From Mayamaea pseudoterrestris (lineage: Eukaryota; Bacillariophyta; Bacillariophyceae; Sellaphorales; Sellaphoraceae): a DNA stretch of 64,000 bases. The position numbers and the translations under genes are program-made. The stretch covers positions 558,001 to 622,000 of the forward strand of contig BROI01000011.1 in the NCBI GenBank assembly GCA_027923505.1, written 5' to 3'. The notes below the pieces were generated by a model that was given only the letters and a program-made list of their open reading frames with translations, did no database searches and was not told where the DNA came from. Below are positions 3,001-54,753 of the stretch, in pieces (position 1 is the stretch's first letter; each line of letters starts with the position of its first letter).

Positions 3001-3627
3001 ATGCACGTCGTTCCACGTAATGCCAGCCTTAAAGAACACGCCCGGCGGAGCAGTAATAATGGTTCCATCCTTCCAGCTAGCCTCCGATCCCTGCTCCAAA
3101 ACTTGCATGGACCGTTGAATGGCGTCAGGAGTTCGGTAGGGATCAATGGCAACTTCCTTGTCGAATTGCCCCAAGCCTCCTGGTGTAAACGGACGACTCT
3201 GACCAACGACGCCGCGCGTGTAGTCGGAAAGCTTGCTCGACAAGTTGCCCGTCAATTGTCGCTTCTGCAAATCCGAGTCGGCTGTGTTTTCGAGCAACGT
3301 CAGTGGCACTTCAATGACGGCGTTGCCTTGTGCAAGATTTGGATCACGTTGCAGCAGTTTGTTTTGAACTTGTTTGGAGAGCGACTTCCACTCCACCAAG
3401 GTTGTCTGCGGCTGCGAGAGTGGACATTTGAATAGTGAATCTGATATTGGTCGTATAAACTGTCCCGTCCGCGGCGAAACAATTCCATGGGCCTGCCAAG
3501 CCTTGCGAATGAGTGCTAGCTGGTGCTGCTTGCCTGCAGATTGCTGCTGCTTTTCTTGCGCTTCCCTTTGTTTCCGTTCCTCGTCTTCCTTTAGTAGACT
3601 TTTCAAACGACTGAGTGACAGTGTCAT
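1..3627 (-). CDS. SKI2: Ski2-type DEVH RNA helicase (3' end outside window)
   Basis: This is the cytoplasmic helicase of the Ski complex, which feeds mRNA to the exosome for 3'-5' decay. Exon 1 is 3627-1375 (751 codons). An intron at 1374-1307 (GTGAGT...TTAG, 68 bp, phase 0) leads to exon 2, which stays open to base 1, so the C-terminus is missing. The first ~390 residues are a low-complexity, acid-rich Ski2 N-terminus. Walker A AHTSAGKT lies near residue 412, DEVH near 506, and SATTPN follows. Exon 2 opens with [13 protein letters not shown] and contains the helicase motif [12 protein letters not shown]. The [11 protein letters not shown] context and long N-terminus favour SKI2 over nuclear MTR4. 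The ATG at 3627 is the first in frame. Assignment as a Ski2-like helicase is very secure; SKI2 rather than MTR4 is likely. Confidence 0.95.
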
Positions 3628-4231
3628 CGTGTTACCGTAGTGAATGTATAAGATGGGCTGATGCGGCTACAAAAGCTACAAGTGCCATGATCAAAAATCA
3701 AAATGCGAGTGATGATGGGTGCGCAAAGGTGCCATTTTGACGTCGCACTGGTTATGACTGTTTTCCGAGGGATAGTACGTAGCTGGACAGCATAACCTGA
3801 ATAAGTTTAAATTCGTGAATTAGGGCTTTCATCATGGAGTATTCATCAATACGACTCAGGAATGACCCTCATTACGTCAAGCAACCATTGGTGTCGAAAG
3901 ATATTAATGACCCAAGGTGCCAAAATGGGGTTATGGCTCAAACGTGATGCAGCTTCTGGGACCTAATTTACATCATTTTGATGAAGTACAACATAACATC
4001 ATCACCTTGTGGGTTTATACAAATGGATCGTTGTGTTTGTAGCTTTTCAGCACTTGTCGTTCCTTCGTTGTCGCTGGGTGGTGAAATTGGTCCATTTTGG
4101 CGAAGCTAAACGCGCTTGTGAAAAGTGGCGAAACGAGTCCCGGTTGCAAAAATCCATCACAACAGCTGGCGCATCTCTAGATGTGCCGAAGCGATTTTCA
4201 CCAAACTTGGACCCTGTATTCTTTAAGCCTA
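3628..4231. other. intergenic, no gene seen
   Basis: Upstream region of the SKI2 gene, AT-rich. A 79-codon plus-strand frame (4009-4248) has no recognisable homology or composition and is not called. The SKI2 promoter must lie at the left end of this stretch, but no specific element could be identified. Confidence 0.6.
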
Positions 4232-4307
4232 TTATCCCGAACTATTAACCGCACTCAGTCGGTCTTTCGTTTTCACGCCAGTTGCGCACCTCCGCCGCCC
4301 ATCAAAA
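4232..4307 (+). repeat. left arm of a 76-bp inverted repeat pair
   Basis: This segment (starting TTATCCCGAACTATTAACCG) reappears as its reverse complement at 5902-5977 with about three differences, roughly 96% identity. The 1.6 kb between the arms carries a Gypsy relic and no intact gene. The similarity stops at both ends of the 76 bp. The pair could be a non-autonomous fold-back transposon or two scattered copies of a short repeat. Confidence 0.8.
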
Positions 4308-4842
4308 TTGCTTCGTGACCGCCCATCCCATCGCCCAAGCATGCATTTTCCTCTTTTGAAGCTTATAATAGGCTGTTTTCATTGATTTAAAGCACTAGAT
4401 CTATTAAGTTAGGTAAGCGGCATCGAACGGTGTACTTGGTTTGGTCATCGAAGGCGTATTGGTCCCGCCGCAGCACCTTTTTGTTCCCGTTGCACCCGTT
4501 TCATCCTCGTCGTCAATCACAGCCTCAATTTACAGCGCTATCCATTTACTCCTATAGTATACACTGACATATCGCTTCTCTAATATATACAGGATAGATA
4601 TCGCATGGAAGATCTGCTTGAATCCATTAGATGGCGCGTAAGCATGTCGCAGAAGAAGGTTGTTGTTGCAGCACGACAAACGACCCAACACTCTCAATAT
4701 GAAACTCCACAAACGCTATTGCTGACGCTTTCAAAGCTATTGAAGACGTCATAATCTTGACCAATCTTGTAAATGGCATTTGTAAGCAAGCAATTGGACA
4801 GAGTCGCCATGCACGTCGAAAGCTATTCGCGATTGGGAGCCA

Positions 4843-5420
4843 TTGTGTCACATTGAGGAAGACAACAAGATTGCAGACGCATTGAGTCGCTTACCCATTG
4901 AAACAGAGAAGGCTAAAACGGATGCCTCAAACAAAACATCCTTTGCCATCGTGGAGGCAACAAGCTCCCACGCTCGTGCTTTACAAATAGCCAAGGCACT
5001 TGCATCGTTACCAAGCAATTTCAAACAGGTCTATCCACACGCAAGCTTACCAATCGTCGATGAATAAACCATGCAATAAGCAGATTAATTATGCATTACG
5101 CTATTCTCTAGATCCATCTATAGAGATCTGATTCTCCCCTTGTGATTCAATGGCTACAATACTCCTCGTCTTAGAGACGTCGTACCGCGGTGTCAGCGTG
5201 TCAGCTCAACGCAAGCTTACCGATCGTCGAGGACTCTCCAACAATTAACAAACAGTCGAGTCAAGAGGAACCAATGGCCTCGGCAAGAGATGCAAACGAA
5301 GACGTCTTTATCTATCCATTGCAGCTGCAAAACATTGTTAAAGCTCAAGCTGCAGCAGCAACCTTGCAACCTTGCGCGAGGAAACTTTTGCATCCCTTCC
5401 TTGAGCTGTTCGTACACTAG
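4843..5420 (+). mobile_element. Gypsy retrotransposon relic (end of RNase H and linker)
   Basis: A plus-strand frame contains DNKIADALSRLP, the signature at the end of Ty3/Gypsy RNase H, followed by the linker toward integrase. It differs from the Gypsy element at 54.8-60.0 kb, so it is another lineage. Only a few hundred bases survive, with no LTRs, and it is broken at several points. A ~21-bp stretch (CGCAAGCTTACCAATCGTCG) occurs twice, at 5033 and 5209, in slightly different form, which suggests an internal duplication or a small insertion between the copies. It is old by its decay. Confidence 0.75.
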
Positions 5421-5901
5421 CGCAACGTGTAGGCGCTGCTGTTCTTGTATATTCCGACATTCTGGTTGTTTGCAAGAATAGAGTTGAAGAGGACTGGCGA
5501 GGGATAGTTTGTCATGGTGGTTTCGACGTTTCGACAAGCAGACAAGCAGCATCTTGATGAGCCGATAAAAATCGGGTGAATGACAACCTTAAACGTTTCT
5601 TTTGGATAATAGCAATCCTGCATATTGAGTTTACGTGGCTTGTGAGACATTATGGGCCAAATAAGCTTTGTAATAGCGCATCGCTTGGTGCCATGCTTGC
5701 CGTTTAAAGCAGCGGCAACGATGCGGTTTGGAAGTCACAAAAGCACCCAAAACGGGACCACTATGGAAAACCAAGTATACCATTGAATGCGCAATATCAA
5801 ACTTAGTCTACTTACAATATTGAATTACTTATAGAGGCTTGGGATGGAATGAAAGAAGCAGCCATGGTTGAAAAAGGGAATGATGGCAAGAAACGGATGC
5901 G

Positions 5902-5977
5902 TTTTTGATGGGCCGCGGAGGTGCCAACTGGCGTGAAAACGAAAGACCGACTGAGTGCGGTTAATAGTTAGGGATAA
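5902..5977 (-). repeat. right arm of the 76-bp inverted repeat pair
   Basis: Reverse complement of 4232-4307 with about three differences. See the left arm. Confidence 0.8.
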
Positions 5978-6708
5978 TTGGTTACCTACGGCAAGTTGCG
6001 GGGGGCAAACTTGTATGCTTGGCATAAGCTTGAGGTAGCAGACCAACAAATCTATCATTCCACCATCAGTACAGTAATGAATCTGCAGACTTACAGTAAG
6101 CCAGTGATAGACGTTGCATTGTCGGCAGCTTCTGGACAACAGTGTGTTCCAAAAGCAAGGCATTAAAGCTAACCAGGCTGCAGCATATCTAGTAAGAACA
6201 TCCACTGTTCTCATGTCATAAGAACAAGTAGTACATTCACCACATTATAGTACTGCATAAGTCAGTACACAACACCTTCTTGGCATGGCTACGATAGCTA
6301 GCAGCACGTGGGAAAGGCCATGAGTACGGTAGCTTTTCACAAACGGTTTGTCGCATCGGTTCTCATAACGAGGAAGTCGACAAGCTCGTTCTTCTGTGGG
6401 ATCAAACTCGGTCCAGAATAGGGATACAGAGAATTTGAGCATACCACCATGTTTGATACTACTTCAAGCATGACATATGTCAAAAATGCAACATACATCT
6501 GGAATTTGATCATGCTGGGACGATTCTTAAAAAAGTGCTCAAATTTCCAATACGAATTAGTCCAACAACTTCGGCTGTATCAATCAGACCAAGCTGCTGA
6601 CTCGCCCATTGTATCAACTATATATATAATGGCCTATTGTGCTTGGTCCAGCCAAAAACATGCATGTTAAGGTCGTCGCGTCGACGATTGAAGATTTGAC
6701 CAGTTTGC
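5978..6708. other. non-coding, no gene seen
   Basis: AT-rich stretch between the right inverted-repeat arm and the Copia insertion. Short frames (6245-6442 minus, 6449-6670 plus) show no family features. It ends with the Copia target site ACCTC at 6709-6713. Likewise nothing was recognised in 5421-5901. Confidence 0.55.
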
Positions 6709-6713
6709 ACCTC

Positions 6714-7025
6714 TTGCAGGATGCGAACGAAAACAGCGAAAATCGGGCAAGTCACACCGAATGTCCGATAGGGTGACACAGCGGCACTCGCGGCTCACCA
6801 CAGCCTCACGATCGCGTGATGCGTGGCAGCGACGGCTTCGAAGCGATTCAACGAGTATATTGCTGAAACTAGTGCGATATAGAGTAGAAACAAGCAGACT
6901 TACTAAGCTTGAAGAGTTAAGAAAGCGATTTATTCGTCTCTCGTATTGTAGCAACTGCAAGCTTGGATTGGCCATCCAAGGACAGCTACAAGCGAAAGGT
7001 GCAACGATTTGATTTACAAGTTACA
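6714..7025 (+). repeat. 5' LTR of the Copia element
   Basis: 312 bp, starting TTGCAGGATGCG and ending AAGTTACA. It is identical to the 3' LTR except for one A in a short A-run. The choice of TTG rather than TG as the first bases follows from the flanking duplication ACCTC. Confidence 0.93.
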
Positions 7026-10000
7026 AGATTAACACTGTCTTGAGACTCATTGCCTCGGCATAGAGACTTTATCGACGAAGAGTACTATTGATTTACGAAG
7101 TAACGTGGACGCACGTTGGTTCTTGGCCCGGAAAGTTCCGCAGGTGATAGCAAGAACATTGTCACGACGACAACGATGGCGGAAACTCGCGCGCAGAAAG
7201 ACGCGGCGTTTGCGCATGTTTACGAAGAGAACGTAGGCGTTTTCCAAGATCCTCAGTTCAAGGAGTTATTCGACGAACTCGGAGTAGAATCGCTTACGCA
7301 ATTGATCGAGATGGAGTACGACGATTTCGCGACGAAGTGGAACGTCACGACGACGACAACGACGACGACTGACGATGGCGACAATGTCACGCAGGAAACG
7401 AGCGAACACTCGCTAACGAAGATGAAACAACGCACGATCACGAACGCGATCGAATGGTATTTGGCGCAAGAGTCGCCGGACATCAAGACATGGTCGCAAC
7501 TGACCACCGAAACGCTGGCGACGTTCGTCACAGCACGAGCGAAGGAACGAGTCCAAGCGCGCAACATTGCGAGCGTGGGCAGCGGAAGCGGAGCGAAACC
7601 TCCAGCGAAGGAAAGCGAAACGGAATCCAAGAAGGACGAATCCAAGGACTCCACGCTAACGAACGAAGGCGACGAGTCGAAGCCCGACTCGGCCGACAAG
7701 GTGCCACCGACGAGCGTGGACGTGGACACGAAGCAGTCACCGACATCCGTACTGGACCTCGGTGACGACGAAGACGACGAGAAGTATTCAGACCAATTTA
7801 CGAAGTCTATCAAGTTCTCGGCGAAGGATTGTAAAGAAATGAAGCTGGATTCCTCGTGGAAACAGTGGATTTCCGAGTTGAAAGTCATCGCTACATTGCA
7901 CGACTTCCACGAAGTCTTTGACGACGATTATGACCCGAAGGAAAAGGGACCGAAGGAACAGAAGGCGTATGCAAAGAAGAATGTGTTTGTATACAGAATC
8001 TTCCTCACGCACTGTCGAACTCCGTCTGCATCACTCGCAGTACAGCAGTTCAAGAAGACGATGGACGGACGCGAAGTCTACCAACGATTGCGAACGCGAT
8101 ACGAAGAAGGCGCTACTGCTCACATCGAGAAGGAACGCGCGCGAACGGAACTGCAGGGAATGCGGCTGACCGAGAAGTGGTCAAGGCCGACGATCGAATT
8201 TCTCGCACTGTTCTACAAGAAAGTCATCTGGCTGCTCGAAATGGACGCAGAAGCTCTGACAGGTTTACAACGATACGACATGCTACGCGACGCTTTCTCT
8301 GAGCACACTGGATTCAGCGCCTCGCTAGCAGGTTTTGACGGAATGATTGCCATCAAGAAACACATGGGGCAACACGACTCGGAAGACAATTTCGCGCAGT
8401 TGTACGCGCACTTAGAAGAGTGCTGCATCAAGTATGACAAGAAGCACCCATCGACGACGAAGACTAAGCGCACAATCAATCAAGCGCAGTCTAGTGGAAC
8501 GAAAGGAGGCGGCGGCGGCAATGGCGGCGCGACTCCAAGCGGCTTATCGGCGGAACGATTTGCAGCGATCATGAAGAAACCTCACGCGAGCGTGAAGGAT
8601 GAAGTCTGGTTGGAGATGAAGTTCGATCAGCGAAAGCAGTTGAAGGACAAGCGTGCGACGGCGCCCAAGACACCCGAAAACGGATGGCGACCGCGCAACC
8701 AACGAGGCACGGCTACGACGCAGACGCAAGTCAACGCGGCGCATCAAGAGCGTCACGCGACGGAATCTGTAGCGAACGATCACGCAAGCGTTCCTGGCAC
8801 GATTAATATTCAGCCAGGCAATAGTGGAATGTCAGTCCAAACGGCTGCACGATCGGTTCTGCAAGCGAATAATGCGAGTACTACAACTCAGCAAGTGACA
8901 GGATCGTTGACGACTGATAACACCGGACGAGGTACATTCAGCTTCAACATGCATCGTCGTATGCGCGTCAATCGCGCACACTACGAGCGGATCAACGAAG
9001 GCGCGCTCATCGACAGCGGCGCGAACGGAGGCTTATGCGGAGGAGACATGCTCGTCGTTTCGGAAACGAACGCCGAGGTGGATGTGACTGGTATTGACGA
9101 TCATATTGTCCCAGCTCTCAAGATTGGCACTGCAGCTGGACTGGCTAAGACCCTTAGTGGCGAAACCATTCTGCTTTTGTGTCACCAGTATGCTTTAAAG
9201 CGAGACGGACCGACGATTCATTGCCCGAATCAATTGCGCGCAATGGGACATCGTGTCGACGATATTCCGACCATGTTTGGCGGAACGCAACGAATTACGA
9301 CGAACATTGGAGGCTACGTTTTGCCATTGGCGATTCGCGATGGCCTGGTGTACTTGGACGTGACGAAACCCACGTTCGATGATTTGGATAAGTATCCGAC
9401 TGTCATCATGACGTCGGACGTGCCGTGGGACCCGACTGTTTACGATGTCGAGCACGCGCACGACGATTTCGACGAACGCGATCACGATTATGGATCTTTC
9501 GACGAACGATTCGACGATGACGGTATCACGCACCGCAATCGTCACACGCCGACACGCACTGGCGACGAACTTGACGTACTGATCAATCGGTGCGTGCGAC
9601 ACGCTCAGTTTTCACGCGTTAATTTGCGGAAGCTACGAAGCAAGGAACCGGACTATAATGCTCTTCGGCCGTACCTCGGATGGGTCCCGACTGAGCGAGT
9701 TCAACAGACTTTACGTCACACGGAAGCATGGTATCATCTCAGCGAACATCCGCGATTACCATTTCGACACCTCACGAAATCACGATTTCCGGCCGCGAAC
9801 GTTCAGCGGTTGCGCGAACTATTCGCCACGGACACGATACACTCTGACACGCCAGCTTTGGATGATGGAATTCTAGGGCATGGGTGAGCTACTAAGATGC
9901 AGCTCTTTGTTGGACGAGAAAGTTTTTACACGCGCGGCTACCCGATGAAGTCGGAGAGCGAAATGTCAAACGCGTTAGAGGATTTTATCCGCGAAGTGGG

Positions 10001-43320: not shown

Positions 43321-44853
43321 TTAAATTTTGGTGGATGAGAATATGCCCAGCACTTGCAGGCCACCATGGCTAGTTTGCATTTTTGTCTCAATATCAAGCC
43401 CGTGGAAGCCCTGTTGCGCAAGCAAACGATCATGCACTAGCATCATTGCTGATGCATTCGATCCAGACTGGTTGAACTTTTGGACCTTATTGGCCAATGT
43501 CTGATAGAGTGGCAGCATCGGATGAAACTTTCGCGAAGGGTTTCTGCTTGCACTTCGAGTGCTTGATATTCTTCGACCAAACGGCAAATTCGTTGCCACC
43601 AAGAGTCGACTTGGAGCATCTGCGGGGTTTTCAAACAATGGTTGGCTGGATATGGCGCAATGTGCAAAGTCAATCATGTGGAGGACACCGGCCCGTTCGG
43701 CGTTTGCCCTGGCCACGTCGATCGCTCCGCTGTCCCGATCCGATCCAAATATACTAATGGAACTGTTCTTTGATGCCTTATTGCTTCTTTCCAATGCATC
43801 CGCCACTTTTGCACTCCACAGTTTGTTGTCGTGTAGCCTTGTCCCTTCAAACGGCGGCGGTCGAAGCCTTCCAGGCGGCAAGCAACTGGCCATGGCAGCT
43901 GCTTCAATCGGAATCGTCCCAGACCCACAGAGAGGATCCAGCAAGCCATTGTAAAAAGGTTCTTCTTGAATTATTCTACTCGCAGGTATCCAATTAGATG
44001 CATAGAGCATTGCAAAGGCCAGATCTTCCCGCAAGGGAGCCTTGGCCGTCTGCAGCCGATACCCACGACGATGCAACGGAGTAGGAGAAGACTGCAGCGC
44101 TATCCGAAATATGTCGCGATCAACTGATACTTGCAAAACAACTGGAGTCGTAGCAGATTGTTGCATCAATCCTGGAATTGGGGCCTGTCCGTCATCTTCC
44201 TTGCATCCAAGACAAGTGTGAACGGCTCGTCGAATGCAATCCGAAACAGCCTTAGTATGCATCAACTTGCTCTTGCTCGCCGTCACTTTGATTTGAAGAT
44301 CCACAAATCCCATGTGTTCTGCACGAAATACTTCTTGCCAAGGTAATCGTTCCAGTTTTCGTTGCAGTTGATGCATCCCTCGCGCCATGAAAGGTTCATT
44401 ATGCAGTGGAAGCAAAATATGCGTCGCAGTTCCAAGATACAAATGACACTTTAAAAGTTGATCCATGTTCATGGGTGCCTTGGCTTGAATAACATGTCTC
44501 TGGTGAGTCTTTACGTGTGGCACATCAAGCGCGGAAAGCTCATCCGACAGGATTGTCTCCAGGCCTGGTTGACAAGTGATCAATGGAGGAGATGTGATGC
44601 CGTGCCGGTAGACTGTTGATTGTAGACATGTCGAATGACCAGTTTCGATTCGTTCAAACTCGTCTGCAACAAGAGACGTCTCATCGGTTTGTATTTCTCG
44701 CTTGCGATGAGATTTCCTCGGTCGTTTCGGCGGATTGATGCTTGCTGACAATGGTTGCCCTGCTCCGAACCGCCGAAGTGACGGGGCTGCAATTTTCACC
44801 AAGCCTCGACTCAAGTCGTGCACGACGCATCGATGCGTCAAGCTAGCGAGCAT
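43321..44853 (-). CDS. THUMP-domain RNA methyltransferase (RlmL/UPF0020 type)
   Basis: 510 residues, one exon, ATG at 44853. The basic N-terminus (MLASLTHRCVVHDLSRGLVK) looks like a mitochondrial or plastid leader. The THUMP region (about 90-235) starts at PPLITCQPGLETILSDEL. The Rossmann methyltransferase part has REDLAFAMLYASNW, motif I DPLCGSGTIPIEAAA near 303, FGSDRDSGAIDVARANAERAG, and the catalytic motif as TNLPFGRR near 420. The family usually has NPPYG there; NLPFG is a conservative variant. It probably methylates guanosine N2 of rRNA. Its first 408 residues are present again at 46868-48092. Confidence 0.9.
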   Translation of the reverse strand: MLASLTHRCVVHDLSRGLVKIAAPSLRRFGAGQPLSASINPPKRPRKSHRKREIQTDETSLVADEFERIETGHSTCLQSTVYRHGITSPPLITCQPGLETILSDELSALDVPHVKTHQRHVIQAKAPMNMDQLLKCHLYLGTATHILLPLHNEPFMARGMHQLQRKLERLPWQEVFRAEHMGFVDLQIKVTASKSKLMHTKAVSDCIRRAVHTCLGCKEDDGQAPIPGLMQQSATTPVVLQVSVDRDIFRIALQSSPTPLHRRGYRLQTAKAPLREDLAFAMLYASNWIPASRIIQEEPFYNGLLDPLCGSGTIPIEAAAMASCLPPGRLRPPPFEGTRLHDNKLWSAKVADALERSNKASKNSSISIFGSDRDSGAIDVARANAERAGVLHMIDFAHCAISSQPLFENPADAPSRLLVATNLPFGRRISSTRSASRNPSRKFHPMLPLYQTLANKVQKFNQSGSNASAMMLVHDRLLAQQGFHGLDIETKMQTSHGGLQVLGIFSSTKI

Positions 44854-45200
44854 TCGCTAGTGACACATAAACTCCTGACTGCGGAAGTTAAATTTTGATT
44901 GTCAATTGCAGGTTTGATGTTTGAAGGATCAGGTCGTGATGGATGAGGCGGAGGTAATGAATCGCACCGGTTCCGGATACAATTCCATCGAAGGCCACAC
45001 AGAAATTTTGTTTCGTCCGTTCGTTGTGTTACATACGCCAACTTCGCGCCGGCCGAGCTTCGGCGCATGCGTCCCGAGAACGCATTGCCACCGGCCGATC
45101 GCAGCAGTGCGCATCATTCATTTGCGACGAGTTTTGAGTGAGGCACTTGGAGCGAGGAAGAGAGCTGAGCGAGGACGCAGACACTACTCTAAACAATACG
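44854..45200. promoter_or_regulatory. divergent promoter, copy 1
   Basis: 347 bp between the methyltransferase (minus) and GT64-like (plus) start codons. Duplicated exactly at 48093-48439. No distinct element recognised. A GTG-led frame begins at 45138, but the first ATG of the GT64 gene is at 45201. Confidence 0.6.
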
Positions 45201-46448
45201 ATGAAGGAGCTCGAAGAAAACAGTCAAGGTAGCAGTGGAACCAAGGACGGAATGGATTACATAGACGACAATGATGTTCATCTCGACGAACATTCCCCTG
45301 GCCTAAAATCCTCCTCCACCACGCTCTCGACGGCGAGCGAAACTTCGGATGGCTCGTTCCTTCCATCCTTTTCGAATGATTCGGATTCCGCCTCGAGAGA
45401 CGAGGAACAGCAAGTGTTTTTGACTACTACAAGCTCTTCCGACGTACTGCGACATCGACGTGATCCTGCTGCTTCCGTCCCTCTTTCCTTTTCTCCACCC
45501 TGTCTCCTTCAATATGCGTCACCACCTGCTTCTTGTCCAGTTGATGGCTACTTTGACAATGATTACTCTCGCTCTCGTTGTACCATAGCCAATGATCAAT
45601 ATCCTGCTGCTGCATGTCCCAAGTCATGGTCTATTCATCAAGGTCTCATCCGAGTATTTCGTCTGATTCTCGTTCTTGGGTTTTCCTTTTTGCTCGCGAA
45701 CCAATTTTGGTCGCACTCCTCCGTCATGGTGGGGACCAACCCGCAACTCAACTGGCGGATACCAGCGTCACGACGACTTGTCCGCAAAATGGTGAGGCGC
45801 ATACAACAGCAGCAACAACATGATCATTACTCCACATCTACTTCTTTTACAATTCTGTTGCGAGCAACTCGCATTGACTTGCTGCAATCTTCCGTGGACC
45901 GGCATGCATCTTGTCCCAATGTAGAATCTGTTCAAATCGACTGGCAAGGCGACCCTGACGAAGAACTGCCGGCAGGTTTAATGCAGCACAAGAGTGGCAA
46001 GGTGCGCGAGCCGGTAACCGATGAGGTTGAGCTTACAAATGCCGTCTTGCTGCTAGAAGAAGGTCTTGAATTTTCATGCCAAGATCTGCAACGAGCCCAT
46101 CACGAATGGCAACGAGATCCTGTTCGCGTCGTTGGGCTTGTTTCGGAGACTAATGAAAACCTTTCGCTCGTTTCCGACAAGGCGGTCTTTGTGCACAAGC
46201 TACTTTTACTTGGTCGACCGAAACGTGACGCGAAAGACAATCTTTGTCGCGAGTTTGTTTTGTCCGCCTTTTTAACAATGGCAACAGCACGGTCAAGTGT
46301 CCCCATGATTAGCAAACCAAAGCGATTGATTGAGGTAGAGCAACAAGCCTCGAAGCAGCAAGAATTACATTGTGTTTCGTTGCTAGCCAAGGCATTTGGT
46401 TTGAAGCAGACTTCTTTGCAAGCGCAACACCATTACGTTGGACTTTAA
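45201..46448 (+). CDS. type II membrane protein with exostosin-like GT64 domain, copy 1
   Basis: 415 residues. A Ser/Asp-rich cytosolic tail of about 150 residues precedes one membrane helix (GLIRVFRLILVLGFSFLLANQFW, two parts), giving a type II Golgi topology. The lumenal domain has FTILLRATRIDLLQSSVDRH, PNVESVQIDWQGDPDEELP, ELTNAVLLLEEGLEFSCQDLQRA and WQRDPVRVVGL, the order seen in GT64 (exostosin-like) transferases that extend polysaccharides from UDP-sugars. The usual DDD metal site is LEE here, so catalysis is doubtful or altered. This is a distant assignment by pattern only. It ends at 46448 and faces the convergent chimeric gene 93 bp away. Confidence 0.7.
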   Translation: MKELEENSQGSSGTKDGMDYIDDNDVHLDEHSPGLKSSSTTLSTASETSDGSFLPSFSNDSDSASRDEEQQVFLTTTSSSDVLRHRRDPAASVPLSFSPPCLLQYASPPASCPVDGYFDNDYSRSRCTIANDQYPAAACPKSWSIHQGLIRVFRLILVLGFSFLLANQFWSHSSVMVGTNPQLNWRIPASRRLVRKMVRRIQQQQQHDHYSTSTSFTILLRATRIDLLQSSVDRHASCPNVESVQIDWQGDPDEELPAGLMQHKSGKVREPVTDEVELTNAVLLLEEGLEFSCQDLQRAHHEWQRDPVRVVGLVSETNENLSLVSDKAVFVHKLLLLGRPKRDAKDNLCREFVLSAFLTMATARSSVPMISKPKRLIEVEQQASKQQELHCVSLLAKAFGLKQTSLQAQHHYVGL

Positions 46449-46541
46449 TAAACCAATTGCTACTACCGTTATCAATTATTGTTAACTTGTCAAAGCAAAA
46501 GAGCATTTCCTTGTCATTCTAATTTATTTTTACATCGGTAG

Positions 46542-48092
46542 TTATCCACGCATGCTCATGCCTCTAGCGAATCCATCCTTTTTGTGATTCTTTGGAACTG
46601 CCTTTTTCTTTTTCTTGCGGGTTGACCGGTCCGCTTCGCTCAGTACAATAATGCGCCGACTCTTTTCAACGGATCTAACATCATTGCCTGTCATGATCAC
46701 GCCTCGGCAAGAAAACCCGACGCCAATGGTGTTATGTCCAACCGATAAGATTGGAATTTCAGACAATTCTTGCCCAATGTCATTCAATAGATGGGAACGA
46801 CCAAGCTCGCGGCCCGAGATAATATCAATGCAAACCGCACAAAGCGACATGTGCTCTGGCAGCGGCTTTTCAAACATTGGTTGGCTGGATATGGCGCAAT
46901 GTGCAAAGTCAATCATGTGGAGGACACCGGCCCGTTCGGCGTTTGCCCTGGCCACGTCGATCGCTCCGCTGTCCCGATCCGATCCAAATATACTAATGGA
47001 ACTGTTCTTTGATGCCTTATTGCTTCTTTCCAATGCATCCGCCACTTTTGCACTCCACAGTTTGTTGTCGTGTAGCCTTGTCCCTTCAAACGGCGGCGGT
47101 CGAAGCCTTCCAGGCGGCAAGCAACTGGCCATGGCAGCTGCTTCAATCGGAATCGTCCCAGACCCACAGAGAGGATCCAGCAAGCCATTGTAAAAAGGTT
47201 CTTCTTGAATTATTCTACTCGCAGGTATCCAATTAGATGCATAGAGCATTGCAAAGGCCAGATCTTCCCGCAAGGGAGCCTTGGCCGTCTGCAGCCGATA
47301 CCCACGACGATGCAACGGAGTAGGAGAAGACTGCAGCGCTATCCGAAATATGTCGCGATCAACTGATACTTGCAAAACAACTGGAGTCGTAGCAGATTGT
47401 TGCATCAATCCTGGAATTGGGGCCTGTCCGTCATCTTCCTTGCATCCAAGACAAGTGTGAACGGCTCGTCGAATGCAATCCGAAACAGCCTTAGTATGCA
47501 TCAACTTGCTCTTGCTCGCCGTCACTTTGATTTGAAGATCCACAAATCCCATGTGTTCTGCACGAAATACTTCTTGCCAAGGTAATCGTTCCAGTTTTCG
47601 TTGCAGTTGATGCATCCCTCGCGCCATGAAAGGTTCATTATGCAGTGGAAGCAAAATATGCGTCGCAGTTCCAAGATACAAATGACACTTTAAAAGTTGA
47701 TCCATGTTCATGGGTGCCTTGGCTTGAATAACATGTCTCTGGTGAGTCTTTACGTGTGGCACATCAAGCGCGGAAAGCTCATCCGACAGGATTGTCTCCA
47801 GGCCTGGTTGACAAGTGATCAATGGAGGAGATGTGATGCCGTGCCGGTAGACTGTTGATTGTAGACATGTCGAATGACCAGTTTCGATTCGTTCAAACTC
47901 GTCTGCAACAAGAGACGTCTCATCGGTTTGTATTTCTCGCTTGCGATGAGATTTCCTCGGTCGTTTCGGCGGATTGATGCTTGCTGACAATGGTTGCCCT
48001 GCTCCGAACCGCCGAAGTGACGGGGCTGCAATTTTCACCAAGCCTCGACTCAAGTCGTGCACGACGCATCGATGCGTCAAGCTAGCGAGCAT
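46542..48092 (-). CDS. chimeric gene: THUMP methyltransferase head + F-box protein tail
   Basis: Single open frame of 516 residues. Residues 1-408 are those of the methyltransferase (ending ...AHCAISSQPMFE), and the rest (KPLPEHMSLCAVCIDIISG to RKKKKKAVPKNHKKDGF) is the C-terminal tail of the zinc-finger/F-box protein. The join at 46867/46868 is the junction of the tandem duplication and keeps the frame. The THUMP domain and motif I survive, but the catalytic NLPFG motif is lost, so methylation is unlikely, while RNA binding could persist. A full copy of the methyltransferase promoter lies upstream and the F-box gene's own 3' end lies downstream, so expression is possible. Alternatively it is an assembly artefact. 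Confidence 0.85.
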   Translation of the reverse strand: MLASLTHRCVVHDLSRGLVKIAAPSLRRFGAGQPLSASINPPKRPRKSHRKREIQTDETSLVADEFERIETGHSTCLQSTVYRHGITSPPLITCQPGLETILSDELSALDVPHVKTHQRHVIQAKAPMNMDQLLKCHLYLGTATHILLPLHNEPFMARGMHQLQRKLERLPWQEVFRAEHMGFVDLQIKVTASKSKLMHTKAVSDCIRRAVHTCLGCKEDDGQAPIPGLMQQSATTPVVLQVSVDRDIFRIALQSSPTPLHRRGYRLQTAKAPLREDLAFAMLYASNWIPASRIIQEEPFYNGLLDPLCGSGTIPIEAAAMASCLPPGRLRPPPFEGTRLHDNKLWSAKVADALERSNKASKNSSISIFGSDRDSGAIDVARANAERAGVLHMIDFAHCAISSQPMFEKPLPEHMSLCAVCIDIISGRELGRSHLLNDIGQELSEIPILSVGHNTIGVGFSCRGVIMTGNDVRSVEKSRRIIVLSEADRSTRKKKKKAVPKNHKKDGFARGMSMRG

Positions 48093-48439
48093 TCGCTAGT
48101 GACACATAAACTCCTGACTGCGGAAGTTAAATTTTGATTGTCAATTGCAGGTTTGATGTTTGAAGGATCAGGTCGTGATGGATGAGGCGGAGGTAATGAA
48201 TCGCACCGGTTCCGGATACAATTCCATCGAAGGCCACACAGAAATTTTGTTTCGTCCGTTCGTTGTGTTACATACGCCAACTTCGCGCCGGCCGAGCTTC
48301 GGCGCATGCGTCCCGAGAACGCATTGCCACCGGCCGATCGCAGCAGTGCGCATCATTCATTTGCGACGAGTTTTGAGTGAGGCACTTGGAGCGAGGAAGA
48401 GAGCTGAGCGAGGACGCAGACACTACTCTAAACAATACG
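48093..48439. promoter_or_regulatory. divergent promoter, copy 2
   Basis: Copy of 44854-45200. It drives the chimeric gene to the left and the second GT64-like gene to the right. Confidence 0.6.
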
Positions 48440-49687
48440 ATGAAGGAGCTCGAAGAAAACAGTCAAGGTAGCAGTGGAACCAAGGACGGAATGGATTACA
48501 TAGACGACAATGATGTTCATCTCGACGAACATTCCCCTGGCCTAAAATCCTCCTCCACCACGCTCTCGACGGCGAGCGAAACTTCGGATGGCTCGTTCCT
48601 TCCATCCTTTTCGAATGATTCGGATTCCGCCTCGAGAGACGAGGAACAGCAAGTGTTTTTGACTACTACAAGCTCTTCCGACGTACTGCGACATCGACGT
48701 GATCCTGCTGCTTCCGTCCCTCTTTCCTTTTCTCCACCCTGTCTCCTTCAATATGCGTCACCACCTGCTTCTTGTCCAGTTGATGGCTACTTTGACAATG
48801 ATTACTCTCGCTCTCGTTGTACCATAGCCAATGATCAATATCCTGCTGCTGCATGTCCCAAGTCATGGTCTATTCATCAAGGTCTCATCCGAGTATTTCG
48901 TCTGATTCTCGTTCTTGGGTTTTCCTTTTTGCTCGCGAACCAATTTTGGTCGCACTCCTCCGTCATGGTGGGGACCAACCCGCAACTCAACTGGCGGATA
49001 CCAGCGTCACGACGACTTGTCCGCAAAATGGTGAGGCGCATACAACAGCAGCAACAACATGATCATTACTCCACATCTACTTCTTTTACAATTCTGTTGC
49101 GAGCAACTCGCATTGACTTGCTGCAATCTTCCGTGGACCGGCATGCATCTTGTCCCAATGTAGAATCTGTTCAAATCGACTGGCAAGGCGACCCTGACGA
49201 AGAACTGCCGGCAGGTTTAATGCAGCACAAGAGTGGCAAGGTGCGCGAGCCGGTAACCGATGAGGTTGAGCTTACAAATGCCGTCTTGCTGCTAGAAGAA
49301 GGTCTTGAATTTTCATGCCAAGATCTGCAACGAGCCCATCACGAATGGCAACGAGATCCTGTTCGCGTCGTTGGGCTTGTTTCGGAGACTAATGAAAACC
49401 TTTCGCTCGTTTCCGACAAGGCGGTCTTTGTGCACAAGCTACTTTTACTTGGTCGACCGAAACGTGACGCGAAAGACAATCTTTGTCGCGAGTTTGTTTT
49501 GTCCGCCTTTTTAACAATGGCAACAGCACGGTCAAGTGTCCCCATGATTAGCAAACCAAAGCGATTGATTGAGGTAGAGCAACAAGCCTCGAAGCAGCAA
49601 GAATTACATTGTGTTTCGTTGCTAGCCAAGGCATTTGGTTTGAAGCAGACTTCTTTGCAAGCGCAACACCATTACGTTGGACTTTAA
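48440..49687 (+). CDS. type II membrane protein with exostosin-like GT64 domain, copy 2
   Basis: Protein identical to the one encoded at 45201-46448 over all 415 residues, with identical flanks. It is the right-hand product of the tandem duplication and doubles the dose of this gene. Ends 93 bp from the convergent F-box gene. Function and doubts as for copy 1. Confidence 0.7.
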   Translation: MKELEENSQGSSGTKDGMDYIDDNDVHLDEHSPGLKSSSTTLSTASETSDGSFLPSFSNDSDSASRDEEQQVFLTTTSSSDVLRHRRDPAASVPLSFSPPCLLQYASPPASCPVDGYFDNDYSRSRCTIANDQYPAAACPKSWSIHQGLIRVFRLILVLGFSFLLANQFWSHSSVMVGTNPQLNWRIPASRRLVRKMVRRIQQQQQHDHYSTSTSFTILLRATRIDLLQSSVDRHASCPNVESVQIDWQGDPDEELPAGLMQHKSGKVREPVTDEVELTNAVLLLEEGLEFSCQDLQRAHHEWQRDPVRVVGLVSETNENLSLVSDKAVFVHKLLLLGRPKRDAKDNLCREFVLSAFLTMATARSSVPMISKPKRLIEVEQQASKQQELHCVSLLAKAFGLKQTSLQAQHHYVGL

Positions 49688-49780
49688 TAAACCAATTGCT
49701 ACTACCGTTATCAATTATTGTTAACTTGTCAAAGCAAAAGAGCATTTCCTTGTCATTCTAATTTATTTTTACATCGGTAG

Positions 49781-52510
49781 TTATCCACGCATGCTCATGC
49801 CTCTAGCGAATCCATCCTTTTTGTGATTCTTTGGAACTGCCTTTTTCTTTTTCTTGCGGGTTGACCGGTCCGCTTCGCTCAGTACAATAATGCGCCGACT
49901 CTTTTCAACGGATCTAACATCATTGCCTGTCATGATCACGCCTCGGCAAGAAAACCCGACGCCAATGGTGTTATGTCCAACCGATAAGATTGGAATTTCA
50001 GACAATTCTTGCCCAATGTCATTCAATAGATGGGAACGACCAAGCTCGCGGCCCGAGATAATATCAATGCAAACCGCACAAAGCGACATGTGCTCTGGCA
50101 GCGGCTCTTCTCCGGCCTGCACAAGTGAATGATGATGCACACGACACAGAGCAAAAATGTGCTGATCCTTGTAGTTTGTTAATCGAACAATCTCTATGTT
50201 ACCGTTAACATCAATCGTTCGATATGAGTCACCATCTTCACGTTCCAAACCAAAATTCACAGAATAGACTGTAATGATTGATTTGTATTTAGTGGGCTCA
50301 TTGCCATTCGTTCGACAGAAGACGTCGGCCGCAATTACGCTTTGTGCCGCGACAACCACTAGTCGTTCCGAGCGCAGAACTAATTGCCAGTCGTCAAGAA
50401 GTGTTTGCTGTCGAGCTATGTCGCAACCATCAATCGGATGCGTCGACCGAACATTACCTGTTGGTTCAATCGATCCCAAAAGGAGCGCAGCGGAGACCGG
50501 AGATGCAACAACAACATGACAATATTGCCGAGACTTTCCCGAAACGCGCTGGCGCGTATAGTTTAGCGACATATTTTCGTGTCTTGGTCGCATGCCTTTG
50601 GTTACGTCGTTTGATTCACCAATCCAAACAATTGCTCCAACACTAGCCGAGAAGAGAACAAGCTTACGATCAATTAGCAGCATGGCGGCGTCAATGTCAT
50701 CTTCGCCAGGGGCAGGTATCGAGATGGACACCTCTACCATAAACCGCCCGTCGCCGCAAGCCGCCAGCGTATGCGACACGAGTGCCTCAATCTCACCCAC
50801 TTGGCCGCCGGCGACCAAAAAGTCGATCAACTGCAACAGTCGATGATCGACGACGTCAGAGCTTAGCAAATAGTTGAGCACCGCCTCGCCGACATCAATT
50901 ATCTTCACTTGCTGGCCATCATAACATGTACCGATAGTATCTAAACCGACACTGCTCTGACCCTGCAGAAACTCATCTCGACTGACAATGATCATAACCC
51001 AGGCTTCTGTGTCGACTTTATCGGCATTCACCTGACACAAACATCCAATGAAATCATGATCAAGGTCCATGGATACAAGGACGCAGTTTCTCCGCCTTGT
51101 ATTCTTGTATGGATCGACACTATGACAAACGAGCTCGCGACAAAGTCTTTCGTCATTGTCTCGAGCAGCACATTCAAACAACCGAATGGAGCAGTCAACA
51201 GAATACGCAACGAGCATTTGACTCGGTGACCAAATTTGAACACCGACGCAAAGATTTGATGCCGTTGGCGCATATTTGCGCGCTGAAAAATCTTGATAAC
51301 ACATTTCCTTCTCTGTCTGACTTTTGCGCGAGTCCAGAGCATACATTGCAGACTGAATGGCTCTCATGTCACGCATGGCAGTGTAGTGCTCGATGAATGC
51401 TTCACGAAATAAATCTCGACTTGGCTCCTCAGGCTCTGCCAGTAAGCTTTGGAATTTAATGCTGGGCACAGGCCAATTTCGACGCTCTAACATAAGGCGC
51501 CATAAATTAGGCGATTGTCCAATTTCTTGGTGCCAAGCTTTGCAAACTTGGGTTGCAACAGCGACAGCTGAATCCGGAAGAAACGTAAGGGTGTACTCCA
51601 AAATTGATCCCGGAAAACTAAGCAACGTTTCACTTGGCAGTGTAGTGTCATCCCTCGACAGTCTACCTCCTTTATCAGTTTTTAAGCCAATGAACTCTCG
51701 ATCATTGATCAAAAGCCCTCCCTGATTTCTGTCGTAAATAAGCTTGTTGCTCACAACAGCATATACAACACTCGCCGGTTTGACACCATGAGCTGTCAAT
51801 TGGTTGGTAATCGCGTCGCTAATAAAAGTGTCTTCATCGCCACTAACAACTTGAATGTGCATGTAGTGAATCATTTCCATCGCCGCGTCGCCTGATGCTA
51901 TTCCGACGGAAGCCGCGTTCTCAGCTGATTGTTGCAGCGCTCGCTCACTCGTCTGCGTCTTTCGCGCTTTTAAAACGTCACATAGAGTTTTGTATGGAGC
52001 AAAGTAGTGATTGTAGCGGCATCCACCTTTTTTGCCCTTCACATCAAGACATTTGCCGGTAAAGAAGTGGGCTTTGCACAGGAACATAGGCTGAGACGGC
52101 CTTTCTTCGTCGACGCTGGCGAGATTCGGTCTGTTTGAATCATTGACCGAGTTGCTTCGCACACGACCCTTACCAGAGATCGAATTTCCACGCAAACCAG
52201 TCAGTAAATTGCTCCCTCGTGCAGCAGAATCGTCATATTCATGCATTGATTCTGCCCGAGCTCGTCGCTTGTCATTTTGCTCGATGCGAACTGCATCCAA
52301 TAGGGGAACACTATCCGTCGGTATACAGTCTGTCCAAACATGGATACCCAATGGACGCTGCGCATGACGATCAATCATTGAAAGCAACTCCTGCGCCATG
52401 TTTTTTTGCTGCCGCTTGTCGGCAGTTTTCTGCTTGCGCAGTTTCGTCTCGCTTCGGCGAATCTCAGTGATTTCAGCACGGCGCTCCCAACCTTGGTTTT
52501 GTTTGACCAT
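49781..52510 (-). CDS. CCCH zinc-finger and F-box-like protein
   Basis: 909 residues from the ATG at 52510 (MVKQNQGWERRAEITE); the frame opens earlier without a Met. A basic coiled start (about 1-45) precedes a CCCH-type zinc finger near residue 140 (CKAHFFTGKC...GGCRYNHYF, spacing C-x8-C-x9-C-x3-H), suggesting RNA binding. An F-box-like helix set lies near 295-345 (SILEYTLTFLPDSAVAVATQ, CKAWHQEIGQSPNLWRLML). The rest is beta-rich and may be a propeller, with a Lys-rich end (RKKKKKAVPKNHKK). It could be a substrate receptor of an SCF ubiquitin ligase acting on RNA-bound targets; this is inference. Its tail is repeated at 46542-46867 and an inner piece at 63625-64000. Confidence 0.85.
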   Translation of the reverse strand: MVKQNQGWERRAEITEIRRSETKLRKQKTADKRQQKNMAQELLSMIDRHAQRPLGIHVWTDCIPTDSVPLLDAVRIEQNDKRRARAESMHEYDDSAARGSNLLTGLRGNSISGKGRVRSNSVNDSNRPNLASVDEERPSQPMFLCKAHFFTGKCLDVKGKKGGCRYNHYFAPYKTLCDVLKARKTQTSERALQQSAENAASVGIASGDAAMEMIHYMHIQVVSGDEDTFISDAITNQLTAHGVKPASVVYAVVSNKLIYDRNQGGLLINDREFIGLKTDKGGRLSRDDTTLPSETLLSFPGSILEYTLTFLPDSAVAVATQVCKAWHQEIGQSPNLWRLMLERRNWPVPSIKFQSLLAEPEEPSRDLFREAFIEHYTAMRDMRAIQSAMYALDSRKSQTEKEMCYQDFSARKYAPTASNLCVGVQIWSPSQMLVAYSVDCSIRLFECAARDNDERLCRELVCHSVDPYKNTRRRNCVLVSMDLDHDFIGCLCQVNADKVDTEAWVMIIVSRDEFLQGQSSVGLDTIGTCYDGQQVKIIDVGEAVLNYLLSSDVVDHRLLQLIDFLVAGGQVGEIEALVSHTLAACGDGRFMVEVSISIPAPGEDDIDAAMLLIDRKLVLFSASVGAIVWIGESNDVTKGMRPRHENMSLNYTRQRVSGKSRQYCHVVVASPVSAALLLGSIEPTGNVRSTHPIDGCDIARQQTLLDDWQLVLRSERLVVVAAQSVIAADVFCRTNGNEPTKYKSIITVYSVNFGLEREDGDSYRTIDVNGNIEIVRLTNYKDQHIFALCRVHHHSLVQAGEEPLPEHMSLCAVCIDIISGRELGRSHLLNDIGQELSEIPILSVGHNTIGVGFSCRGVIMTGNDVRSVEKSRRIIVLSEADRSTRKKKKKAVPKNHKKDGFARGMSMRG

Positions 52511-52989
52511 ATTTTTGTTAAACTTGGCTGTTGTTCTAGCCTGTCTAAAAGGTTCAATTCTTATGCAATGAAGCAAAAATAGTGTCAGCACACGATGCCG
52601 TCCTCTGATCTACATCACGAGATTTCCATCGGAGGTCCGTTTCCAATTCACGCCTTGAAAACTCAAGCACAAGCATTACCTTTCGTCCTCACGTTTCAGA
52701 AGGAAATGAGGGTCGACCGGCGCGCTCATTCAACGGATGTCACATAGAGCCAGGCGAGCCGTTGGAAGTTGAACCGACCGATGGTGCATGTCCTCACAAA
52801 ACCACTGCCGTCAAACCTGTGTCCTTGCGAGCATTTTCTTATTCGAAGACAGTTTATTGCCAGCTGCTCATCAATCTATTGCCAACCGAGCCCCACATTG
52901 CAAGTTATAGCTGATCAGATAAGTCAGCATCGCTTCGAACAGCAAGTAAAACAGCGAGCAGCATAACAGCAGCAGGCAGCGGTGACAAA
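52511..52989. promoter_or_regulatory. divergent promoter region
   Basis: 479 bp between the F-box gene (minus) and the membrane-protein gene (plus). A 65-codon plus frame (52769-52966) has no signal peptide or homology and is not called. Confidence 0.5.
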
Positions 52990-54375
52990 ATGTCGCAAGG
53001 CACGCAGCAACTTCATGACCTCGTCAGAGCGTTAGAGATAATTGCGTATGATGATACTGTTGCGCTCGATCCACCGGAAGAGACAAACACCGCTAGTTTT
53101 CCAGTGGCTGTTACAGCTGCCCCAACAGAGGCGCCTGTCGACCAAATCATTGCGGACCAACTACCTCAAGCAAACGACCCAGACGACACGCCCGCATCCG
53201 CCTTCAACGCCACGACCGATATCAGCAACTACTTTGACAACTCTGAAACCGATTGTACCTTCTCCAGCAATCCAGACACGCTGTTATGCAACGTCACTGC
53301 CTTTCGTTGCTCCAACAGTCAATCCTTTGTGACGATTCCATACGACTACGAGATTGTTCACAAAGCAAGCGAAGTCAGTCGTCTATCACATCTGCTTGAG
53401 GTTATTGAAGGGAATATTCTTGATCAGCTTTCAATGGATATAGGGCTGAAGAACTGTGCGAAATCGTTTGGAGGTCGCCGCGCTCAAGCGGAAACTAGCT
53501 TTGGAAATGGTCAGATGGACTATCAACTCACCGGCATGAGCCTCCTACCGAGAGACAAAACGACTACGGAGAAGTGTTTGTCGACAATTGACCATGGAAT
53601 GGCTGTTTGTAGCAGCATCAAGGGCGCGCTGACTGTGTATACCTTGCAGACAACGGCGGAGGCAATGCTTTCCAACCAAGAACGCCTTGCATTGCAGCAA
53701 GCAGTCCTAGAAGTGATTCAAGAAGGTATGCTTGAAGAAAAGTTTCTTACTTCTGCGCATGGGGAAAAGGTTGTATACATAGGTGATCGCCTTGCGGTAT
53801 TGTCAAGTCAGCAGAGTCAAACAATGACGGAGACAGGGTGGACTACTCGCTCAAAAGGTCTCGTTTCAGCAGCGATAATCTTATCTCTCCTCGTTATTGC
53901 TGTGCTGTGCTACATCCGGTGTCACTTTAAGTTTGGCAAGGGCTCTCGTTATGTGCGCGACACTAGTGGCTCGTCAGTGGACACAGATGCACGTCCTGAT
54001 ACAGTGGAACAAATGGCAAGCAATTCGAGTTCCCTTGGACCGCAAGATCTTCCAGCGGTGCATGGAGATGCAAAAGGCATCCCGACCACAGCGACGAAGT
54101 GGAATCAATCTGGGTCGCAAGATCAAGGCACGGAATGTATTGAGTTTGACAAGCCGTCAGAGCTTGATGAATCGGTGGGCAGCATGGGAGTCGCCACGTT
54201 TGATCTGGATACACTGGTGGAAACCACGACAGACATTGGCAACTACCAGTTCAGCTATGACCAAGGCATCTCACCAATCAATGAAACCTTCGACAATCTT
54301 TACGAAGACGTGGAGATTCCCATGACATTTGATGATGCTTCGGGTGGATCAGTTGGTCAACGACTCGAGAACTGA
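52990..54375 (+). CDS. single-pass membrane protein of unknown function
   Basis: 461 residues, ATG at 52990. The first ~290 residues include a Thr/Asp/Pro-rich stretch, then a folded part with several cysteines (DTLLCNVTAFRCSNS, GLKNCAKSF, EKCLSTIDHGMAVCSS) and NxT/S sites, which looks extracellular. One membrane helix (GLVSAAIILSLLVIAVLCYI) lies near 292-312, followed by a 150-residue acidic Ser/Thr-rich tail ending in FDNLYEDVEIPMTFDDASGG. No N-terminal signal peptide is seen, so either the helix acts as a reverse anchor or a first exon has been missed. I know no family name. Confidence 0.8.
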   Translation: MSQGTQQLHDLVRALEIIAYDDTVALDPPEETNTASFPVAVTAAPTEAPVDQIIADQLPQANDPDDTPASAFNATTDISNYFDNSETDCTFSSNPDTLLCNVTAFRCSNSQSFVTIPYDYEIVHKASEVSRLSHLLEVIEGNILDQLSMDIGLKNCAKSFGGRRAQAETSFGNGQMDYQLTGMSLLPRDKTTTEKCLSTIDHGMAVCSSIKGALTVYTLQTTAEAMLSNQERLALQQAVLEVIQEGMLEEKFLTSAHGEKVVYIGDRLAVLSSQQSQTMTETGWTTRSKGLVSAAIILSLLVIAVLCYIRCHFKFGKGSRYVRDTSGSSVDTDARPDTVEQMASNSSSLGPQDLPAVHGDAKGIPTTATKWNQSGSQDQGTECIEFDKPSELDESVGSMGVATFDLDTLVETTTDIGNYQFSYDQGISPINETFDNLYEDVEIPMTFDDASGGSVGQRLEN

Positions 54376-54753
54376 ATTACACTTCGTAAGCATGTGTACG
54401 ATAATTTTCATAATGTAATTATATTTAGTGTTCATAACTCTTCATTTTTCTTGCTGGTGTTATCGGTCTGAGGAACAAGCAAGTGGAAGGGCGTTGGTGA
54501 GGTATAAATACGAGCATTGAAACGAGCATAGGTAGCTAAAACAAAGGCTCTCAGAGCATCCTCAACGCGGCGCATCCATTTCAGTTTAAAACGTCATCAT
54601 GAGTCACGCTGACGTCATTTGGTCGCACCATTTGGAATTTGCGTCTGCAACGGTGAATTTAAATCGTTTCATTTAGGTTCATTTGATCCGGCCGGCGCGC
54701 AAAAATTAAAACTTGGTGGCGCGTTTCCTTTTTCGCGCCGAAAAGGTATTGCG
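54376..54753. other. intergenic, possible left end of PIF/Harbinger transposon
   Basis: The stretch starting GGCTCTCAGAGCATCCTCAA at 54546 resembles termini of plant-type PIF/Harbinger transposons, whose genes lie to the right at 60.1-61.8 kb. The matching right terminus is not in the window, so the assignment is tentative. The stretch ends with TTGCG (54749-54753), the Gypsy target site. Confidence 0.4.

What the first reader, a model, noticed from the sequence alone, without database searches (positions are those of the whole stretch)
43629..50106. Exact 3239-bp tandem duplication that makes an in-frame chimeric gene
The two units are identical apart from one base that I could find. The junction joins codon 408 of a THUMP methyltransferase to the last ~109 codons of an F-box protein without loss of frame, and the duplicated divergent promoter gives the chimera its own control region. 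The catalytic motif is lost but the THUMP domain is kept. This looks like a new gene caught at birth, and a dosage doubling of the GT64-like gene.
Basis: seen in the sequence. Interest (0 to 1): 0.85.

Follow-up and report, generated by a model that had tools for sequence, protein, structure and literature searches.

The report
Exact tandem duplication with chimeric reading-frame
A 3.2-kilobase piece of an algal (probably diatom) chromosome appears twice in a row, and the seam happens to fuse the front of one gene to the end of another; it is either a very young duplication or an assembly slip, and nothing shows that the fused gene works.

Summary
Observation confirmed: window 43629-46867 and 46868-50106 are head-to-tail copies (3,239 bp) with one mismatch and 1 bp of border homology. 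The chimeric ORF 46542-48092(-) is in frame: 408 codons of an RlmL/Trm14-type methyltransferase plus the last ~109 of a weakly supported F-box-like gene; both parents stay intact. Motif I is kept, motif IV (NLPFG) lost. The GT64-like ORF passes Pfam's cut-off but matches half the domain and has EEG where EXTL2 has DDD, so 'dosage' is weak. 'New gene caught at birth' is not shown: in-frame is 1 in 3 by chance, and there are no substitutions or expression data to test. The case is not isolated: the same contig holds an exact 8,327-bp and a 794-bp (one mismatch) tandem copy; C2 has a 19,839-bp one (100% over 10,000 tested bases), C24 a 12,496-bp direct repeat. Two begin at a repeat-element edge, which suggests assembly errors. 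The lone mismatch lies 10 bp from the seam and is of the rarest spontaneous class measured in a diatom. A real, very young end-joining duplication: about 0.52; mis-assembly: 0.42. Seam chimeras are a known kind.

The parts
43629..46867 (.). Unit copy 1 (3,239 bp)
   Evidence: Offset comparison, one mismatch with copy 2
46868..50106 (.). Unit copy 2 (3,239 bp)
   Evidence: two places listed in the assembly
46867..46868 (.). Seam, 1 bp (T) homology between the two borders; single mismatch at 46877, the 10th base of copy 2
43321..44853 (-). Intact parent: RlmL/Trm14-type RNA methyltransferase-like ORF, 510 aa, motif I DPLCGSGT at 306, motif IV NLPFG at 422
   Evidence: PF01170 4.8e-28; 3ldu 2.4e-26; RlmKL and Trm14 models matched below their cut-offs; motif positions
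45201..46448 (+). GT64-like ORF copy A, 415 aa, N-terminal half of the domain only, EEG aligned to DDD of EXTL2
   Evidence: PF09258 33.6 bits, cut-off 21.3, profile 1-113/245; EXTL2 alignment
46542..48092 (-). Chimeric ORF, 516 aa: methyltransferase codons 1-408 plus about 109 terminal codons (stop included) of the F-box-like gene
   Evidence: match to 3ldu stops at residue 396
48093..48439 (.). Copied 347-bp divergent spacer (presumed promoter region) of the chimera and GT64-like copy B; original at 44854-45200
48440..49687 (+). GT64-like ORF copy B, identical to copy A
49781..52510 (-). Intact parent: 909-aa F-box-like ORF
   Evidence: F-box-like E 0.0044, 17.2 bits, below cut-off 24.3; no PDB match at E up to 1

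Best explanation
A very young tandem duplication made by end joining or template switching between two sites without homology: one breakpoint inside the methyltransferase gene, the other inside the F-box-like gene, both on the minus strand. Because the two genes point the same way, the seam joins the front of one to the tail of the other; because the copy carries the shared spacer and the F-box-like 3' end, the fusion has a start region and an end region. Keeping frame was a 1-in-3 accident. The product, if made, would keep the N-terminal and THUMP part and SAM motif I but lose motif IV and what follows, so I infer a dead enzyme and most likely a neutral by-product. Shown: anatomy, frame, identity, motif loss. 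Inferred: that it is in the living genome, the repair route, the lack of function.
For: Near-exact copies and 1-bp border homology. The search listed no further copy of the unit in the assembly, so the seam is not at a known repeat, where assemblers usually fail (general knowledge). No ordinary mutation in 3,239 bp: at 4.77e-10 per site per generation (PMC6604790) the 95% bound is about 9.7e5 generations without gene conversion. Duplication seems to be a real process at this locus: an older 95.6%-identical copy of C11:609403-612540 lies at 621625-624741 and also ends inside the F-box-like gene, joined to other sequence to give a 411-aa frame. Chimeras at tandem-duplication seams are documented in Drosophila (PMC4503668, passages and introduction).
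Against: No read, RNA or second strain was available. The one mismatch is the 10th base from the seam (0.6% by chance, both ends counted) and an A/T transversion, the rarest class in the diatom data (4 of the 146 substitutions listed by class): a sign of a junction or consensus error rather than later mutation. Other exact repeats in the same assembly look like assembly slips.
Confidence: 0.52

Rival explanations
1. Assembly artefact: two overlapping contig or unitig ends were concatenated instead of merged (or a chimeric read was followed), writing one 3,239-bp stretch twice; the chimeric gene does not exist.
For: Seam with 1 bp of homology and a lone mismatch 10 bp from it, as expected of a poor contig end. 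Other repeats of this sort: 8,327 bp with 0 mismatches, 23 bp out of register with its 48-bp array and with the same frame shift in both copies; 794 bp, one mismatch at the 22nd base from its end, starting at an LTR-like edge; 19,839 bp on C2, 100% over the 10,000 bases tested, seam within one base of the edge of a dispersed repeat; a 12,496-bp direct repeat on C24, 100% over the 2,500 bases tested, abutment not tested. False duplications and false chimeric gene gains are documented in vertebrate assemblies (PMC9516828, passages).
Against: Unlike two of those, this seam is not at a listed repeat. There are no gap letters, whereas the false duplications in PMC9516828 were often separated by a gap (passage). 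An exact copy is equally expected of a young real duplication.
Confidence: 0.42
2. A real duplication whose chimeric gene is expressed and has a new role, for example an RNA-binding methyltransferase remnant carrying the lysine-rich tail of the F-box-like protein.
For: Open frame, whole copied spacer, native 3' end, N-terminal and THUMP part kept.
Against: The methyltransferase match is cut from profile 1-141 to 1-110 of 197 and motif IV is gone; no substitutions to show constraint; no expression evidence; frame retention is 1 in 3 by chance.
Confidence: 0.05

Closest known systems
Chimeric genes at tandem-duplication seams (Rogers and colleagues, Drosophila yakuba and D. simulans, PMC4503668, PMC5460883)
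   Same: Both breakpoints inside genes of one orientation, parents kept, new fusion at the seam
   Different: No population or expression data here; an alga, probably a diatom; not verified with reads
False duplications and false chimeric gene gains in assemblies (PMC9516828)
   Same: Near-identical copies; chimeric gene at the join
   Different: No gap letters at this seam; reads not available to test it
RlmL / Trm14 THUMP methyltransferases (3ldu, 3v8v; NF008748, NF040721)
   Same: Parent gene matches through N-terminal, THUMP and methyltransferase parts
   Different: Below the equivalog cut-offs; the chimera loses motif IV onwards

Membership tests
Tandem-duplication chimeric gene | Adjacent direct copies with breakpoints inside two genes of the same strand | tested here: met
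Tandem-duplication chimeric gene | Open fused frame with both parents intact | tested here: met
   ORFs of 510, 516 and 909 aa
Tandem-duplication chimeric gene | Present in the organism's DNA (spanning reads) | not testable with these tools
   No reads held
Tandem-duplication chimeric gene | Transcribed | not testable with these tools
   No RNA data held
RlmL/Trm14 RNA methyltransferase (chimera) | SAM motif I | tested here: met
   DPLCGSGT at 306; aligned with DPMCGSGT of 3ldu
RlmL/Trm14 RNA methyltransferase (chimera) | Catalytic motif IV (role recalled; NLPFG of the parent aligned with NPPYG of 3ldu) | tested here: not met
   NLPFG at 422 in the parent, absent in the chimera
RlmL/Trm14 RNA methyltransferase (parent) | Score above the NCBIfam equivalog cut-off | tested here: not met
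   181.9 against 466 (RlmKL) and 76.8 against 280 (Trm14); PF01170 98.6 against 22.3 is met
GT64 glycosyltransferase | Pfam score above cut-off | tested here: met
   33.6 against 21.3 bits
GT64 glycosyltransferase | Whole domain and the DDD triad (its metal-binding role is recalled) | tested here: not met
   Profile 1-113 of 245; EEG aligned to DDD of EXTL2
F-box protein (parent) | F-box above Pfam cut-off | tested here: not met
   17.2 bits against 24.3

The most novel reading that the evidence does not exclude
If the exact repeats on C11, C2 and C24 are all real (and the C24 copies abut), this strain is in a burst of very recent, homology-free tandem duplication, minting chimeric genes at many seams at once, and the 516-aa fusion is one of them.
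Probability: 0.17. Interest if true: 0.6.

Novelty: new member of a known kind. Interest (0 to 1): 0.22.

Why it matters
If real, it is a clean example of the first step of gene birth by tandem duplication, outside animals. If not, it warns that gene counts and fusion genes in this assembly need checking, since several exact repeats of 0.8 to 20 kb turned up in a small sample of it.

Tried and rejected
Rejected: an old duplication kept alike by chance (outside the unit the two flanks differ at once). Rejected: recombination between flanking repeats (1 bp border homology, no further copy listed). Rejected: the mismatch as a clock (position and type). Not supported: a simple nested insertion for the 794-bp LTR-like copy (an exact 23-base piece of the remainder occurs once in the 264 kb, inside the second copy, and not after the last LTR-like end). 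Gene conversion keeping older copies identical is not excluded.

Led nowhere: naming the species. Mayamaea pseudoterrestris was a guess from recall about genome size; its paper is not held, other papers gave no size for it in what I saw (listing; PMC12159174 outline, passages and one section; PMC12803021 passages), and a search for a 30.6 Mb diatom found 0 papers. The light-harvesting gene matches fucoxanthin-binding chains (no organism is named there), hence 'probably a diatom'. The 18S search failed twice; the RuBisCO search gave 0 matches. Searches for a diatom chimera of this kind gave 0 papers and 2 papers that by their listing are on other subjects. Searches (2 papers; loose listing) were not used. 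The same locus in other strains was not sought: no collection of eukaryote genomes is held, and I ran no scan of the viral or prokaryote collections. No structure was predicted.

Full report
What was checked. The window is C11:558001-622000 of a 30.63-Mb, 41-contig assembly. A light-harvesting gene beside the locus matches fucoxanthin chlorophyll proteins (the output names no organism), so I take the organism for a diatom; the species was not identified.

The duplication. At offset 3239 the window matches itself from 43628 to 46867 with one mismatch, 43638 A against 46877 T. The match is one base longer than the period, so the borders share 1 bp (T). A search of the assembly listed the unit at these two places only (it skips very common words).

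The genes. From left to right: intact methyltransferase ORF 43321-44853(-), GT64-like ORF 45201-46448(+), chimera 46542-48092(-), second GT64-like ORF 48440-49687(+), intact F-box-like ORF 49781-52510(-). The methyltransferase matches PF01170 (4.8e-28), 3ldu (2.4e-26) and RlmL (5.3e-22), and the RlmKL and archaeal Trm14 models below their cut-offs. The THUMP part is inferred from the 3ldu and Trm14 alignments; no Pfam THUMP model was listed. The chimera keeps DPLCGSGT (306) and loses NLPFG (422 in the parent); its match to 3ldu ends at residue 396 instead of 434, and to PF01170 at profile position 110 instead of 141 of 197. The GT64-like ORF is above the Pfam cut-off but matches only the first half of the profile, and its alignment puts EEG where EXTL2 has DDD. 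Four other GT64 matches were listed in the assembly. The F-box match is below cut-off, and no solved structure matched that protein at E up to 1.

Frame and age. Frame retention has a chance of one in three; the F-box-like frame is open anyway. With the diatom rate of 4.77e-10 (PMC6604790, seen as passages), no ordinary change in 3,239 bp bounds the age at about 9.7e5 generations, if the rate carries over and no conversion occurred. The one mismatch is not usable as a clock: it is the 10th base from the seam (0.6% by chance, both ends counted) and an AT to TA change, 4 of the 146 substitutions listed by class in that paper's table.

Is it alone? In 264 kb of C11 (458001-722000) I scanned for direct repeats (exact words at any distance but with very repeated words left out; periods 300-8,999; periods 60-9,999; the printed lists are capped at 40, 25 and 40 rows, so smaller repeats may be missed). 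Besides the given unit: an exact 8,327-bp two-copy repeat at 478078 (8,328 matching positions, 0 mismatches) in a coding array of 48-bp repeats, its seam 23 bp out of register with the array though the protein frame runs on across it, and the same frame shift in both copies; a 794-bp copy at 521023, one mismatch at the 22nd base from its end, whose unit starts at an LTR-like end; and a 338-bp tandem match at 630506 in a local cluster of repeats. The other rows lie in the 48-bp-type arrays at about 459 kb and 476-496 kb. Four further 10-kb pieces showed no sizeable repeat with period 60-4,999 (best score 127, L036), though one of them, L035, turned out to hold the seam of a longer one: C2 484834-504672 / 504673-524511, period 19,839, 100% over the 10,000 of 19,839 positions tested, the two matches meeting at one shared base, and 37 of the 39 rows being a dispersed repeat that starts one base on (the query's own place is not among the rows). 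Four gene families (kinase 119 of 229 first-look candidates scored, helicase 106 of 106, AAA 19 of 106, RRM 113 of 113: 357 scored; the kinase list was cut) were read by eye for pairs with identical scores on one contig and strand within 50 kb: three places, C24 (period 12,496, kinase and AAA), C2 (the same 19,839) and C1 (period 820, RRM, not checked further). The C24 repeat is 100% over the 2,500 bases tested; whether its copies abut was not tested. So exact direct repeats are a property of this assembly, not of this locus alone.

Two readings. Seams at repeat edges (C2, 794 bp) and the out-of-register array seam are what a mis-resolved assembly graph would write; that pulls the given case towards artefact. 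Against that, its own seam is not at a listed repeat, has no gap letters, and the locus has an older duplication: C11:609403-612540 and 621625-624741 are 95.6% alike, carry a paralogue of the neighbouring 461-aa ORF (96.5%), and the second copy cuts the F-box-like gene after about 369 residues, joining it to other sequence (411-aa frame) beside Copia-like fragments (the Copia name is recalled from the look of the protein, not from a search). Copies so diverged, with different flanks, are hard to explain as a slip, although a divergent second haplotype is not formally excluded. I therefore leave the two readings close, 0.52 and 0.42.

Known kind. Chimeras at tandem-duplication seams are described for Drosophila, with a formation rate of 3.7e-10 per gene per generation in D. 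yakuba (PMC4503668, passages and introduction), and expression changes by such shuffling (PMC5460883, abstract). False duplications with false chimeric gains are described for vertebrate assemblies (PMC9516828, passages). The finding is a possible new member of the first or of the second.

Noticed in passing
C11:478078-494731 (outside the window; L005-L006): Exact 8,327-bp two-copy tandem repeat inside a ~19-kb coding array of 48-bp (16-aa) repeats of a secreted-looking protein; seam out of register with the array, same apparent frame shift in both copies.
   Followed up: partly
C2:484834-524512 (L035 holds the seam): 19,839-bp tandem copy, 100% over 10,000 tested bases, seam one base from the start of a dispersed ~394-bp repeat; kinase frame 412 aa in one copy and 857 in the other.
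   Followed up: partly
C24:416001-430996 (L038): 12,496-bp direct repeat with identically scoring kinase and AAA genes, 100% over 2,500 tested bases.
   Followed up: partly
C1:1386044-1387052: Two RRM matches with identical score 820 bp apart, frames of 166 and 1456 aa; possible further exact copy.
   Followed up: no
window 51403-54540 and C11:621625-624741: Older 95.6%-identical duplication of the start of the F-box-like gene and the neighbouring 461-aa ORF; the second copy gives a truncated 411-aa frame beside retroelement-like fragments.
   Followed up: partly
C11:521023-527056: LTR-type element with its first 794 bp in two copies, one mismatch at the 22nd base from the unit's end.
   Followed up: partly
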